From Candidatus Electrothrix rattekaaiensis (GTDB lineage: Bacteria > Desulfobacterota > Desulfobulbia > Desulfobulbales > Desulfobulbaceae): a DNA stretch of 64,000 nt. A program made the translations under genes and the position numbers. The notes below the pieces were generated by a model. The model saw only the letters and a program-made list of their open reading frames with translations, was not told the DNA's origin and made no database searches. Positions 13,514 to 58,249 of this stretch are shown in pieces; positions within the stretch are counted from its first letter, which is position 1; every line of letters starts with the position of its first letter. The stretch covers positions 62,001 to 126,000 of the forward strand of contig JAVQMD010000002.1 of assembly GCA_032595675.1 (NCBI GenBank), given 5' to 3'.

Positions 13514-15142
13514 ATGATCACTGACTTACATACTTCTATAAAAAATCAAGAACTTGCGCATCAAGATCTTTCCTGTCTTTACGAGATCACAAAAATTCTT
13601 GCCGCCGGAACCGATCTTCAGGAGAGTCTGAACAGGGTGGTCCGAGTGCTGGCGGATATGAAAGAAATGGAAAACGGTACCGTGACGATCGTTAATCCAT
13701 TGACCAGAGAGCTAGAAATTGAGGTCGCTTGCGGGATTACGGCAACAGCTCAGAAAAAAGGAAAGTACAAGCTGGGGGAGGGGATTACCGGTCGGGTTGT
13801 TTCCACCGGCGAACCGGTTATTGTTCCCCGGATCGGGGAAGAACCGCTCTTTCTCAACAGAACCGGCATTCGGAATGACGAACAGAAAAAGAAAAGTTCC
13901 TTTATCTGTGTCCCTGTCAAGGTCACGTTTGAAAGTTCCGAACATAAGGTTTTAGCTCAGGATATCCATAATCGACCGGATAATCTGTCCATAGGAGCCT
14001 TGTCTGTTGATCGATATTATGCAAAAGAATTCGGCTCGCAATCAGAACAGGATCTCCGTTTTCTCACCATTGTCAGTGCGCTGATCGCCCAAGCTGTACA
14101 CAAGGTTCAAGTTATTAACCGAGAAAAAGAGGCTCTCCAGCAGGAAAATCAGCGTCTTCGTAGGGAGTTATCCGCAAAGAACCGCCTGAGTGATATTATC
14201 GGAAATTCTTCACGGATGCAGGAAGTCTTTGAAATGGTCCATAGGGTTGCGGATTCTAATGCTACTGTCCTGCTGCGAGGTGAATCCGGCACCGGTAAGT
14301 CCTTGGTTGCCAAGGCATTGCATCATAATTCCCGTCGGGCGGACAAACCCTTTTTGGTGGTCAACTGCTCCGCCCTGCCTGAGAATCTTCTGGAAAGCGA
14401 ACTGTTCGGGCATGAAAGAGGGGCGTTTACTGGGGCCGAACAACGGAAAAAAGGTCGATTTGAACAGGCTGAAGGAGGAACCCTTTTCCTCGATGAAATC
14501 GGTGAAATAAGCACCACTGTCCAGATAAAGTTACTCAATGTGATTCAGGAACGCTGCTTTCAGCGTCTCGGGGGAACTGAAATCATTAAAGCGGATATTC
14601 GTCTTGTTGCGGCCACCAATCGCAATCTTGAAGAAGCCGTGCTTGAAGGAGTCTTCCGGGAGGATTTGTATTACCGGCTCAATGTCTTTCCTGTGCATAT
14701 CCCTCCGCTCCGGGAGCGGCGAACAGATATTTTACTGCTGGCGGAATATTTTTTGGAGCAATATTGCAAAGAAAATAATAAGCGGATTGAACGGATCTCC
14801 ACCACAGCTATTGATTTGCTGATCAAGTATCACTGGCCGGGCAATGTCCGCGAATTGCAAAACTGCATGGAACGAGCTGTACTTATCTGTGATTCAAATA
14901 CAATAAGCTCGGTTCATCTCCCCCCTACTTTACAAAGCTCGGAAACGGTGAGCACCGACAGCCCACTTTCTTTATCCGGTGCGGTGGAGAGTTTTGAAAA
15001 GGAGTTGATTATTGATGCGCTCAAGCACACCAACGGTAATCAAACCAAGGCGGCAGCCCGTCTGGAGACAAGCCTGCGGATCATCAACTATAAAATTCAT
15101 AATTACGGGATTGATCCCAAGCAGTTCAAGGTGAAATCATGA
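13514..15142 (+). CDS. NifA-like sigma-54-dependent transcriptional activator (GAF-AAA+-Fis HTH)
   Basis: 542 residues. An N-terminal GAF sensor domain covers about residues 20-195. The AAA+ domain has Walker A GESGTGKS (256-263), the sigma-54-contacting GAFTGA loop (303-308) and Walker B LFLDEIG. A Fis-type helix-turn-helix lies at the C-terminus ([19 protein letters not shown]). The domain order and GAF sequence resemble NifA, the nitrogen-fixation activator, but no nif gene lies in the window, so the target is unproven. It overlaps queH by 4 bases. Confidence 0.88.
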
Positions 15143-17047: not shown

Positions 17048-17178
17048 GCCCTGTTCTTCCACGAATAAACTCTTTCTTCCGCCGCCCTCTTTTCCACGCC
17101 ACAGGAAAATACTCCTGAGTAAGAAAGGAAAAAGGACGGCTCACCTAGACGCACATATCCTCCGATGCGGCAGGTTTC

Positions 17179-17345
17179 TCTTTTTCCAGACAGGTCTTCT
17201 GACTCCCGGATCATCCTCCCGGCTGCGCCTTCCCGCATATGCAGTGGCTTTGTGCAGCGTTTGTCCCCGGTTACAGCGGCGGGCCCGTCCCGGATTCACA
17301 CCGGGTTCCCTATTAAGCTCGGTTAGGAGCATCTGAAAAGATGCT
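17179..17345 (-). promoter_or_regulatory. Cobalamin riboswitch (reverse strand)
   Basis: Read on the reverse strand it shows the conserved core in order: TAGGGAA, CCGGTGTGAATCCGGGAC, CGCTGTAA, AGCCACTG, CGGGAAGG and GGGAGTCAGAAGACCTG. Flanking segments can form the closing P1 helix. Adenosyl- or methylcobalamin binding would turn off the downstream 69-residue gene. Confidence 0.94.
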
Positions 17346-17499
17346 CAGAATTTACCTTCCCCCCTCTTTCCTGTCAATACTTGATTGATGGCGGGGATGT
17401 ACCATTTCGCACCAAATAAGTGAGTCAGCTTTCTTGTCACTGACGCAAAATGCGTTTATAATGCGCCGGTGCTGCAATAAGCACACATAACAAATATAC

Positions 17500-17650
17500 G
17501 ATGTTCAGTTAACGGAACACGGTGTGAATCCGTGGCATACCCAATGCTGTAACCCCTGCATACATCCTGCACATTCATAGTCACTGTTTCTCACCGGAAA
17601 CGGGAAGGCTGCTGCACGAGAGGGGAAGCCAGAAGACGAACTGAAGATCT
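17500..17650 (+). promoter_or_regulatory. Cobalamin riboswitch upstream of the ThiC-family gene
   Basis: Core elements in order: CACGGTGTGAATCCGTGG, ATGCTGTAA, AGTCACTG, CGGGAAGGC and GAAGCCAGAAGAC. A 7-bp P1 helix TTCAGTT/AACTGAA (17504-17510 with 17639-17645) closes it. No TPP riboswitch is visible upstream of the gene, which would be the expected control for a thiamine thiC. Confidence 0.92.
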
Positions 17651-17672
17651 TACGAATATGGAACACGATGGT

Positions 17673-17717
17673 AAAGGGTTCCGGAAGAGCAATTGCTCTG
17701 CCGGCACCCTTTTTTTA
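17673..17717 (+). terminator. Attenuator terminator in the leader of the ThiC-family gene
   Basis: Long hairpin with arms AAAGGGT/ACCCTTT and CCGG/CCGG plus GAGC/GCTC near the loop, followed by seven T. It sits between the cobalamin riboswitch and the coding start at 17751, so control by transcription termination is likely. Confidence 0.88.
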
Positions 17718-17750
17718 TTCCGGCAGGGCGATCAAACAATAAGGTACACA

Positions 17751-19079
17751 ATGCAGACCCAATCGACCCAACTGGAATTGGCCCGTGCAGGAAAAATAAC
17801 CGAGCAGATCAAAATCGTTGCTCAAAATGAGGGCCTTGCTCTGGAGCTCGTCAGAAGTCGAGTTGCAGCCGGAGAAATCGTTATCGCCAACCATCCCCTG
17901 CGCCCGCAAGAGAAGGTTGTTGGTATCGGCACAGGATTACGCACCAAGGTCAACGCCTCCATAGGCACCTCTTCCGATATCTGCGATATCGACATGGAGG
18001 TCCGTAAAGCGAAAATTGCTGAACAGGAAGGGGCCGATACCCTGATGGAGCTCTCGGCTGCTGGTGATTTTGATGCCATTCGGCAGGCTGTTCTGGCGGC
18101 CACCAACCTGCCTGTGGGTACGGTGCCCCTTTATCAGGCCTTTAAAGAGACCACGACCAAATATGCCAATCCGGGCAAAATGGACCCGGAATACCTCTTT
18201 GACCTGATTGAAAAACAGCTAGCCGATGGCATCAGCTTCATGGCCATCCACTGCGGAATCAATCAATACACGATTGAGCGACTGCGCAAGCAAGGCTACC
18301 GCTACGGTGGGCTGGTATCTAAGGGCGGCACTTTCATGGTGGCCTGGATGGATATCAACGGCAAAGAAAATCCGCTGTACGACCAGTTTGACCGAGTCTG
18401 CGGCCTGATGAAAAAATATGATGCCATCCTTTCTCTGGGCAACGGCATCCGGGCTGGGGCTATTCACGACAGCCATGATCGGGCCCAGATGGCGGAGATG
18501 ATCATCAACTGTGAACTGGCCGAGTTAGGTCGGGAAATGGGCTGTCAGATGATGGTGGAAGGACCGGGGCATGTGCCCTTGGATGAAATCGCAGGCAATA
18601 TCATGCTGGAAAAACGGATGAGCGGCAATGCGCCCTATTATGTGCTCGGTCCCCTGCCTTTGGACAGTGGCGCAGGCTATGACCATATTACGGCTGCCAT
18701 CGGTGCGGCCAACTCTTCCCGGCACGGCGCAGACCTGGTTTGCTATATCACTCCGGCGGAACATCTTGCCCTGCCCGATGAAAACGATGTGCGTGAAGGG
18801 GTTCGGGCCACCCGCTTGGCAGTCCGGGTTGGAGATGTTGCCAAGTATCCAGAGAGGCGGGATAACGAGAAGGCCGCTGCGATGGCTCGACGGGATATGC
18901 GCTGGGATGATCTGGAACAGCACCTGCTCTTCCCGGAAATTGCTCGAAAATTGCGCCAAGAGAGAATGCCGGAAAAAAGCGATACCTGCACCATGTGTGG
19001 CGATTTCTGTGCTATGAAAAAAGGTACCGAGGTGTTTAAAGATGATATCGCGGGAGACAAGCTTGCCCAGACAACCTAA
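17751..19079 (+). CDS. thiC: ThiC-family radical SAM enzyme, likely 5-hydroxybenzimidazole synthase BzaF
   Basis: 442 residues from the ATG at 17751; a start at 17658 would run through the attenuator hairpin and is rejected. An AAGG motif precedes the ATG. The fold is ThiC (KVNASIGTS, EGPGHVPLDEI) with a C-terminal CTMCGDFC cluster motif (CX2CX3C; the long E. coli-type ThiC has CX2CX4C). ThiC makes the thiamine pyrimidine from aminoimidazole ribotide. Its paralogue BzaF makes 5-hydroxybenzimidazole for the B12 lower ligand from the same substrate. The cobalamin riboswitch and attenuator in the leader, with no TPP riboswitch, favour BzaF. Sequence alone does not separate the two. Confidence 0.88.
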   Translation: MQTQSTQLELARAGKITEQIKIVAQNEGLALELVRSRVAAGEIVIANHPLRPQEKVVGIGTGLRTKVNASIGTSSDICDIDMEVRKAKIAEQEGADTLMELSAAGDFDAIRQAVLAATNLPVGTVPLYQAFKETTTKYANPGKMDPEYLFDLIEKQLADGISFMAIHCGINQYTIERLRKQGYRYGGLVSKGGTFMVAWMDINGKENPLYDQFDRVCGLMKKYDAILSLGNGIRAGAIHDSHDRAQMAEMIINCELAELGREMGCQMMVEGPGHVPLDEIAGNIMLEKRMSGNAPYYVLGPLPLDSGAGYDHITAAIGAANSSRHGADLVCYITPAEHLALPDENDVREGVRATRLAVRVGDVAKYPERRDNEKAAAMARRDMRWDDLEQHLLFPEIARKLRQERMPEKSDTCTMCGDFCAMKKGTEVFKDDIAGDKLAQTT

Positions 19080-56464: not shown

Positions 56465-58249
56465 TTATTTTTTTACTTTTTTCCCATGAGGAGTAATCGT
56501 AGGAGGATCTGTCGATTTAGGAGCAGCCGGTTCCGATGCTGTCGGCTGTGACGGCTTCTGCTCGTCCTTCTTTACCTGCTCTTCCTTTTGCTTTTCCTCG
56601 CCCTTTTCTTCCTGCTGCTTTGCTTTCGGCTTTACTTTCTCCTTTATTGGCGAACATCCCAGCCGCTTTACTTTTTCAGAAAAAATAAAATTATCGTCAT
56701 GCTCAGGGGTATGACATCCTAGGCAGACCTTCTCATCTGGCCGGGCAACAGGTACTTTTCCCTGACCTGCGCTATGTGCCGCTGCTGGACCGTGACAGGC
56801 CTCGCAGCCGACGTTTTTCAGTGACTTAGGAAGCATGAGCAGGAGATTGCTTGCCTTGACCTTGTCGGCATCATACAACGGCAACGTAACGTGACAGAGC
56901 ACACAGTCTTCGTTGAACTGCTGATTTTTCTTTTCTAAGGTGGTCCAAGCCTGAGCATGTTTGCTGTCCTGCCAAACAGTCATTTGGGCTGCATGGCATT
57001 CCTGGCATTTCTGTGAACCTGCTACATCCTGAAGGGTGATTGTCGGTTCATTCAGACCCAGTTGCGCAAGTCGTTTTTGGTTGATCTCATTTGCCTTTTT
57101 AATAGCCCGGTCAATAATTTTTTTGACCTTTGGATCTTCCGGCAACGAGGTCTCTAGAGGAAAAAAACGATTGGTATATTTGCACACACCTTCATCCTCC
57201 GGGTCGGAATCCCTGCTTTTCTTTAACGCCTTTATACTTTGAACAAGCTGTTTCTTTTCTGCGGATAATTTTTTATACCCTTTATCCTTTGCCAACGCCG
57301 CCTTCTTTTTTTGTTTTTCCAAGCGGGCAAGCTGCTGGCTCACACGCTTCAGGCGATCCTCCTCGGTTCGTATCCGACTAAAGGACTTATCTGTCCATTG
57401 GCCAGCTTTGTTCCAGTCAATCCGCATCATGCCCAGGTATTTTCCTCGTGTTCCGGTTTGGGCAATCAGCGTATTTTCAATTTTATAGGGCTCTGTGGTC
57501 GGAGCGGCATGGCTGGATCCAAGAATCATATGAAGGCCGTTAACAGTTTCAGCTATTTCTTTATTGATTTGGTAGGAATAGCTTGAAAGAAGAATGGTCA
57601 TATCGACCTTCTTACCAACCTCAGCAAGGGTCTTTGGTAGAGTATCCTGCCAAGGAAGGATGGTATAGCCTTTCTCTTTACCTGCTCCATTATGCTCAGC
57701 CTGATCATCGGTCAAGCCGAATAAAGCGATCTTTAAGTCACCGACTTTTGTAATAAGGTACGGTGTGAAGATGGGTTTCTTTTTTGCTGGATCAACCAAG
57801 TTCATGGAGAGCCAAACGGTTTTATGTCGCTCTTGAAGATCTTTTAATACGCTGAGACCACCGGCCAAGTCGTGGGCACCGATACCCACAGCCTGACAGT
57901 TCATCGCCTGCATGGCCGCAGCAAGACCATCAGCCTGGGCTTTTTCTGCGAGTTCTTTTTTTGCCTGTATTTTTTTATGCTTAAAAAGCAGAGAGCCGCT
58001 ATCAACAAACAAAAAAGGAAGTTTCTCCTGTTGAGCAAATTTTGTTATCTGTAATGCTTTTCTGGACAGACCGCCCAGTTGTTTTTTCTTTCAACCACAG
58101 GGTTGGAGCTCACCACGCACATCATTTCCGTAAAAAAGTAAAAATTCTTTTGCCCAAGATGACGGCGCCAAGGTCAGCAGTAAAATCAGCAGCAGAAAAA
58201 GATGGGGGAATATGCGTTTTCTTCGAGACAGCATCGCTATAAAATTCAT
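56465..58249 (-). CDS. Tetraheme cytochrome c with metallophosphatase-like N-domain and in-frame UGA (probable selenoprotein)
   Basis: Reading from the ATG at 58249 gives 594 residues if the single in-frame TGA at 58093-58091 is read as selenocysteine (residue 53). Signal peptide RRKRIFPHLFLLLILLLTLA. The motif GNDVRGELQPCG-U-KKKQLGGLSRK follows; homologues have Cys where the UGA stands (PCGC...GGL). A UshA-like metallophosphatase-type domain runs to about 290. Four heme motifs lie at about 415 (CQECH), 449 (CVLCH), 482 (CEACH) and 509 (CLGCH), then a Lys/Pro/Glu-rich tail. Periplasmic electron transfer is expected. No Shine-Dalgarno is clear at this start. Confidence 0.85.
58062..58093 (-). 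promoter_or_regulatory. Bacterial SECIS-like element after in-frame UGA
   Basis: Reverse strand: the UGA (58093-58091) is followed by 18 bases, then an apical loop GGUCU closed by the 6-bp stem CUGGGC/GUCCAG (one G-U pair). E. coli fdhF has the same GGUCU loop at the same 18-base distance from its UGA. Confidence 0.8.

What the first reader, a model, noticed from the sequence alone, without database searches (positions are those of the whole stretch)
56465..58249. Probable new selenoprotein: Sec in the CGC motif of a phosphatase-cytochrome fusion
Seen: the frame upstream of the apparent start at 58012 is open for 79 codons, encodes a signal peptide and has a single TGA at 58093-58091. The TGA falls exactly where relatives with the PCGC-x5-GGL pattern have their second Cys. 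Seen: 18 bases after the UGA there is a GGUCU apical loop on a 6-bp stem (CUGGGC/GUCCAG), the arrangement known from the E. coli fdhF SECIS. Known: sulfate reducers commonly use selenocysteine. Inference: the protein is a Sec-containing tetraheme cytochrome that standard gene calling would truncate, losing its signal peptide and redox motif. Sec next to hemes suggests redox or metalloid chemistry.
Basis: partly seen in the sequence, partly recalled or inferred. Interest (0 to 1): 0.92.

Follow-up and report, generated by a model that had tools for sequence, protein, structure and literature searches.

The report
Selenocysteine-containing UshA-like tetraheme cytochrome
A cable-bacterium gene that looks cut in two by a stop codon almost certainly makes one whole exported protein carrying selenocysteine and four hemes; it belongs to a selenoprotein family already on record, whose function I found no test of.

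Summary
Frame 58249-56465 (-) has one in-frame TGA (58093-58091) at the second residue of a PCG[C/U] motif, followed by a GGUCU hairpin. Of 98 distinct members read (window included), 85 have TGA there, 12 a Cys codon, 1 neither. The genome carries selA, selB, tRNA-Sec and selD. A stem of at least 5 bp follows the site in 80 of 85 Sec genes (about 12 expected from synonymous shuffling) and 2 of 12 Cys genes. In sister genus g10, all five genomes have Cys, no selA and no convincing tRNA-Sec. So the UGA is almost certainly read as selenocysteine.

It is not a new kind: 604.6 bits against NCBIfam NF041198 'UshA-like (seleno)protein' (cut-off 275); UshA-like CxU selenoproteins were reported in 2008 (PMC2398784). 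'Phosphatase' misleads: most metal-ligand positions of 5'-nucleotidases are lost. Best reading: a periplasmic Sec/Cys redox protein wired to four c-type hemes, substrate unknown, perhaps a sulfur or selenium compound. Incorporation and activity are not shown experimentally. New member of a known family; interest moderate to low.

The parts
56465..58249 (-). whole gene with UGA read as Sec: 594-residue UshA-like (PCGU) tetraheme selenoprotein, stop codon included
   Evidence: translation; NF041198 604.6 bits against cut-off 275, residues 17-523, profile 5-518 of 519
58151..58249 (-). putative signal peptide, residues 1-33 (by eye)
   Evidence: sequence; not run through a predictor
58091..58093 (-). 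in-frame UGA, read as selenocysteine (residue 53 of P-C-G-U)
   Evidence: the codon is TGA in 85, Cys in 12 and CGA in 1 of 98 distinct members, window included
58097..58099 (-). Cys51 codon, partner of Sec53 in the CxU motif
   Evidence: Cys in 97 of 97 aligned members (L065 left out)
58062..58078 (-). bSECIS-like hairpin, 6-bp stem CUGGGC/GUCCAG with GGUCU loop, starting 12 nt after the UGA
57350..58147 (-). 5'-nucleotidase/UshA-like domain with degenerate metal site, about residues 35-300
   Evidence: profile matches 5'-nucleotidases 3ivd, 2z1a, 1ush; ligand positions mostly lost
56993..57007 (-). heme motif 1 CQECH (415-419)
   Evidence: PF13435 48.2 bits
56891..56905 (-). heme motif 2 CVLCH (449-453)
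56792..56806 (-). heme motif 3 CEACH (482-486)
56711..56725 (-). heme motif 4 CLGCH (509-513)

Best explanation
The gene encodes one exported protein of the NF041198 (UshA-like PCGU) family. UGA 58093-58091 is decoded as selenocysteine by SelB and tRNA-Sec, helped by the hairpin 12 nt downstream. Strongly supported by comparison: the Sec decoding (about 0.95). Inferred (about 0.45): in the periplasm the degenerate 5'-nucleotidase-like domain no longer hydrolyses phosphate; its Cys51/Sec53 pair, just after the old first metal-binding motif, acts as a thiol/selenol redox centre on a small substrate, and the C-terminal c554-like tetraheme domain takes or supplies the electrons. A sulfur or selenium compound is my first guess for the substrate; that guess is weak.
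For: UGA aligns with Cys in relatives. Sec machinery: tRNA-Sec 74.8 bits, selB 375.9, selA 626, selD 343.8, itself with one in-frame TGA. Stem of 5 bp or more in 80 of 85 Sec genes (expected 11.7 under synonymous shuffling) but 2 of 12 Cys genes (expected 1.3), Fisher p 1.4e-8. GGC at the first Gly codon of the motif's GG in 84 of 85 Sec and 7 of 12 Cys genes. Outermost stem pair swaps C-G and U-A. All five genomes of sister genus g10 carry Cys; none has a tRNA-Sec match and none has selA. The tree forces three Sec/Cys changes, most simply three Sec-to-Cys conversions. C51 and residue 53 invariant in 97 of 97 (L065 left out), and two extra His (H431, H492) in all 94 heme-bearing rows. Metal-ligand positions mostly lost.
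Against: No peptide or 75Se data. The window's hairpin alone is within chance. Folding energy does not mark the Sec genes: only 7 of 85 have p of 0.05 or less (2 of 12 Cys), and mean energies are alike. Only one of six stem pairs shows a two-sided change; the outermost pair is unpaired in 13 of 61 rows and is C/A in 20 of all 85. Two of 12 Cys genes keep a 6-bp stem and 5 of 85 Sec genes have fewer than 5 bp. L065 has neither Cys nor Sec. Three of 101 loci show no heme motif in the frame read (L067, L070, L075), so heme coupling is not universal. Several Sec-bearing genomes gave no tRNA-Sec match. Fisher tests ignore shared descent. Substrate and electron direction are untested; neighbours tell little.
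Confidence: 0.7

Rival explanations
1. The TGA is a true stop: a sequencing error, a pseudogene, or a short leader ORF before a shorter cytosolic protein from TTG 58012.
For: The shorter ORF is what a standard list gives.
Against: The same TGA stands at the same place in 85 of 98 distinct members (window included) with the protein conserved on both sides. The shorter form would lose the export signal that four CXXCH hemes need.
Confidence: 0.03
2. The domain is still a metallo-hydrolase (5'-nucleotidase-like or SoxB-like) with a rearranged metal site in which Cys51/Sec53 serve as metal ligands.
For: Profile similarity to 5'-nucleotidases (E to 2e-25) and SoxB; best single-sequence score outside the UshA-like (seleno)protein models is SoxB (55.9 bits, below its cut-off of 550); four distant members keep 4 of 7 ligand-type residues; Pfam Metallophos matches 2 of 32 members.
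Against: Bridging Asn kept in 0 of 97, Asp86 in 9, His223 in 5, His246 in 7, catalytic His in 12, the window included. Ligand identities are recalled and the mapping at 246/248 is uncertain. A metal role would not obviously favour Sec.
Confidence: 0.2
3. It acts in selenium handling itself, for example periplasmic reduction of selenium oxyanions feeding SelD.
For: In genus g30 the Cys copy lies directly after yedF in all 4 Cys-copy loci read, and in two of these selD precedes yedF.
Against: All four are one clade and probably one event. In the other 36 of 40 loci clustered, no member of that yedF cluster appears in the few kb read (not all neighbours were scanned). In the window's genome the one yedF found lies elsewhere (C2:509161). 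Genus g10 keeps the Cys gene although selA and yedF were not found there.
Confidence: 0.12

Closest known systems
NCBIfam NF041198 UshA_like_PCGU, 'UshA-like (seleno)protein'
   Same: Near full-length match, PCG[C/U] motif, 604.6 bits against cut-off 275
   Different: Nothing essential found; the window protein and its close kin add a charged C-terminal tail (about residues 530-594)
COG0737 UshA-like CxU selenoproteins of the Global Ocean Sampling survey (PMC2398784)
   Same: UshA-like, CxU motif; 76 Sec and 92 Cys forms listed there (passages)
   Different: In the passages on this family that I read, neither hemes nor cable bacteria are mentioned
NCBIfam NF049981 UshA-like selenoprotein family 2
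   Same: Related UshA-like domain (42.9 bits)
   Different: Below its cut-off of 140; listed motif CxxU, not CxU
5'-nucleotidase/UshA and SoxB
   Same: Same domain by profile
   Different: Metal and catalytic positions mostly lost; PCG[C/U] just after the first motif
Cytochrome c554 (PF13435; 1bvb)
   Same: Tetraheme C-terminal domain
   Different: Here fused behind the UshA-like domain

Membership tests
NF041198 UshA-like (seleno)protein | score over the curated cut-off along nearly the whole profile | tested here: met
   604.6 bits, cut-off 275, profile 5-518 of 519
NF041198 UshA-like (seleno)protein | PCG[C/U] motif | tested here: met
bacterial selenoprotein gene | in-frame UGA aligned with Cys in homologues | tested here: met
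   85 TGA (window included), 12 Cys, 1 neither among 98
bacterial selenoprotein gene | selA, selB, selC, selD in the genome | tested here: met
bacterial selenoprotein gene | bSECIS-like hairpin just after the UGA | tested here: met
   80 of 85 Sec genes against 2 of 12 Cys genes; the window hairpin alone is within chance
bacterial selenoprotein gene | selenium in the protein | not testable with these tools
   needs mass spectrometry or 75Se
5'-nucleotidase / metallophosphatase | dinuclear metal ligands and catalytic His | tested here: not met
   window residues D, R, S, A, S, S, A for the 7 ligand positions (1 of 7 kept); the catalytic position is His (positions recalled, mapped)
cytochrome c554 domain PF13435 | score over gathering cut-off | tested here: met
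   48.2 against 20.8 bits; 32 of 32 members of A1 match at E 0.01
SoxB TIGR04486 | score over curated cut-off | tested here: not met
   55.9 against 550 bits

The most novel reading that the evidence does not exclude
A metallophosphatase fold was decommissioned as a hydrolase and turned into a selenium redox enzyme: a CxU pair planted next to the lost metal site and wired to a c554-like tetraheme, giving periplasmic multiheme-coupled selenol chemistry on a sulfur or selenium substrate in marine cable bacteria, their order and beyond.
Probability: 0.35. Interest if true: 0.65.

Novelty: new member of a known kind. Interest (0 to 1): 0.35.

Why it matters
It corrects a gene that plain ORF calling truncates, and it gives a natural experiment: neighbouring genera with Sec and with Cys in the same protein, one apparently without Sec machinery. 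The family reaches its cut-off in 160 of 195 relatives searched, and in 98 of the 101 loci read it carries four CXXCH motifs. A Sec residue fused to four hemes points to an untested periplasmic redox reaction in this group.

Tried and rejected
Structure prediction of P0001 without an alignment failed (mean pLDDT 40.5, pTM 0.26), so I ran no fold search and do not know whether C51/U53 lie at the old metal site.

Folding energy as a SECIS test failed: no difference between Sec (mean -8.52) and Cys (-8.65) genes; p = 0.40 for the window; p of 0.05 or less in 7 of 85 Sec and 2 of 12 Cys genes. I then used a test for a stem at the fixed place. That test was chosen after the energy test had failed, and its two stem registers came from looking at the sequences.

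The Rfam scan of the window found no SECIS family at gathering threshold; its four matches are two cobalamin riboswitches and two tRNAs.

Neighbours gave little: an AAA+ ATPase gene (resembles RarA/MgsA; name recalled, not scanned) lies upstream in 23 of 40 loci, and a DHH/DHHA2 protein downstream on the other strand in 15 of 40 (one example scanned).

A scan of the window for readthrough candidates with Cys near the TGA listed 13 sites, this one included; it has by far the longest frame downstream (542 codons). I did not test the other 12 against families.

A general recoding of UGA: set aside without a full test, because at least one scanned regulator gene here ends in TGA (13514-15142).

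Rows dropped: L036, L101, L098, identical over the compared stretch to L035, L047, L048; L065 (neither Cys nor Sec; placed by a looser pattern) from the SECIS tests, alignment and tree; L049 replaced by P0001, the same gene. In some searches I gave 61 of the 69 loci in the window's stem register; left out were L022, L048, L055, L060, L072, L075, L077 and L123. A1 holds 32 sequences. The tree is the quick method with long branches flagged. Match lists were cut by the tool. Papers: of PMC2398784, PMC9312934, PMC13188914, PMC10030654 and PMC12013277 I saw passages only; PMC10030654 gave nothing used here.

Full report
What is there. On the - strand, 58249-56465, one frame of 594 residues is broken only by TGA 58093-58091. 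It carries a hydrophobic N-terminus, the motif LQPCGU-KKKQL-GGL, a 5'-nucleotidase-like domain, four CXXCH motifs and a charged tail. ORF listing without readthrough starts at TTG 58012 and loses the signal and the motif. The two named relatives found, Candidatus Electrothrix marina and Ca. E. aarhusensis, are 90% identical in their best segments. Two genomes that one search places in the window's own genus (G005, G003) carry proteins identical to these over the stretch compared (L101 with L047, L098 with L048). So the window comes from a cable bacterium of that genus.

The family is known. The protein scores 604.6 bits against NCBIfam NF041198 UshA_like_PCGU, cut-off 275. The Global Ocean Sampling paper lists UshA-like (COG0737) with motif CxU, 76 selenoproteins and 92 Cys homologues (PMC2398784, passages). 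Reviews of 2022 and 2026 list it too (PMC9312934, PMC13188914, passages). No paper in the held library has both 'selenoprotein' and 'cable bacteria' or 'selenocysteine' and 'Electrothrix'; that is absence in those two searches only.

Sec or stop. Of 195 relatives, 160 genomes have a match over the cut-off; most of the near full-length matches listed have exactly one internal TGA (list cut). I read 101 loci: 88 TGA, 11 TGC, 1 TGT, 1 CGA at the aligned codon; three were duplicates, leaving 85 Sec (window included), 12 Cys, 1 neither (L065, PSGR). Cys copies were fetched on purpose. The window's genome has tRNA-Sec (74.8 bits), selB (375.9), selA (626) and selD (343.8, with its own internal TGA).

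The hairpin. It stands at 58078-58062. On its own it is within chance: z -0.97, energy p 0.40, P(6-bp stem) 0.050. Energy does not mark the family's Sec genes either (7 of 85 at p 0.05). The stem at that place does: at least 5 bp in 80 of 85 Sec genes (11.7 expected if synonymous codons are redrawn) and in 2 of 12 Cys genes (1.3 expected), Fisher p 1.4e-8. In 69 loci in the window's register the outermost pair is U-A in 30, C-G in 22, C/A in 11, U/G in 3, with A on the 5' side in 3. On 61 of these, 96.4% of cells pair against 25-60% when slid; 4 of 6 pairs never vary and so say nothing; one has two-sided changes in 18 rows and is unpaired in 13. These tests do not correct for descent.

Sec lost and replaced. 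A quick tree of 97 sequences needs three changes of the Sec/Cys label, with Cys in three clades. The clade beside the window's genus is g10: five genomes, all Cys at the site, none with tRNA-Sec at 1e-9, none with selA and none with yedF at 1e-25. Three of the five are over 90% complete. A looser tRNA-Sec search gave matches of 41.5-47.1 bits there, against 68-79 for the matches listed (a cut list; the weakest accepted had E 4e-10). Two of the loose ones just pass the 47-bit cut-off; I read them as ordinary tRNAs. The other two Cys clades lie in genomes that have tRNA-Sec; five of these hold a Sec copy as well as a Cys copy (G090, G120, G128, G143, G154). Some Sec-bearing genomes also lacked a tRNA-Sec match at 1e-9 (for example G005, G027, G043, G077). 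G077 has selA in two pieces, so assembly gaps are the likely reason there; the others I did not test for selA.

What the protein may do. A profile of 32 members matches 5'-nucleotidases (3ivd, E 2e-25), UshA, SoxB, cytochrome c554 and other multiheme proteins (best of all 6i5b, E 3e-29). But of seven metal-ligand positions (recalled from UshA, mapped) the family keeps, in 97 rows, Asp43 in 79, His45 in 17, Asp86 in 9, Asn125 in 0, His223 in 5, His246 in 7, His/Gln248 in 10; the catalytic His position is His in 12, the window included. No row keeps more than 4 of 7, and the four that keep 4 are distant members. By contrast C51, G52, residue 53 and G59-G60 are invariant in those 97, as are, in all 94 heme-bearing rows, the four heme motifs and two further His. 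I infer a redox role for C51/U53 with the hemes as partner. Three of 101 loci (L067, L070, L075) show no heme motif in the frame read, so the partner may be separate in those.

Neighbours give little. One exception: in genus g30 the Cys copy follows yedF in 4 loci, and selD-yedF in two of them; that is one clade.

Verdict. The function is open: I met no test of it in the passages I read.

Noticed in passing
17172-17351 (-) and 17489-17659 (+): Two divergent cobalamin riboswitches (118.6 and 70.4 bits). The + one ends at the start of a ThiC-like gene 17658-19079 (thiC 502.9 bits, over cut-off; BzaB-like 499.1, below cut-off 700), so the gene may serve the B12 lower ligand rather than thiamin.
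   Followed up: partly
window's genome, contig C1:1925405-1926334 and C1:1741955-1742899: Two selD genes, one with an in-frame TGA and one without.
   Followed up: no
genus g10 (G016, G026, G034, G040, G046): Clade beside the window's genus in the protein tree: selA and yedF not found, no convincing tRNA-Sec, Cys in this protein.
   Followed up: partly
L095, L096 (selD-yedF-gene) and L092, L094 (yedF-gene): Cys form of this gene directly after yedF, in two loci after selD and yedF.
   Followed up: partly
L067, L070, L075: Family members with the UshA-like domain and UGA but no heme motif in the frame read.
   Followed up: no
L065 (G302:C168): Member with PSGR in place of PCG[C/U], neither Cys nor Sec.
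   Followed up: no
G012: Contig length 3,596,428 equals the size given for Desulfolithobacter dissulfuricans GF1 in a table of PMC12013277, whose row lists 22 known selenoprotein genes as I read it (passage).
   Followed up: no
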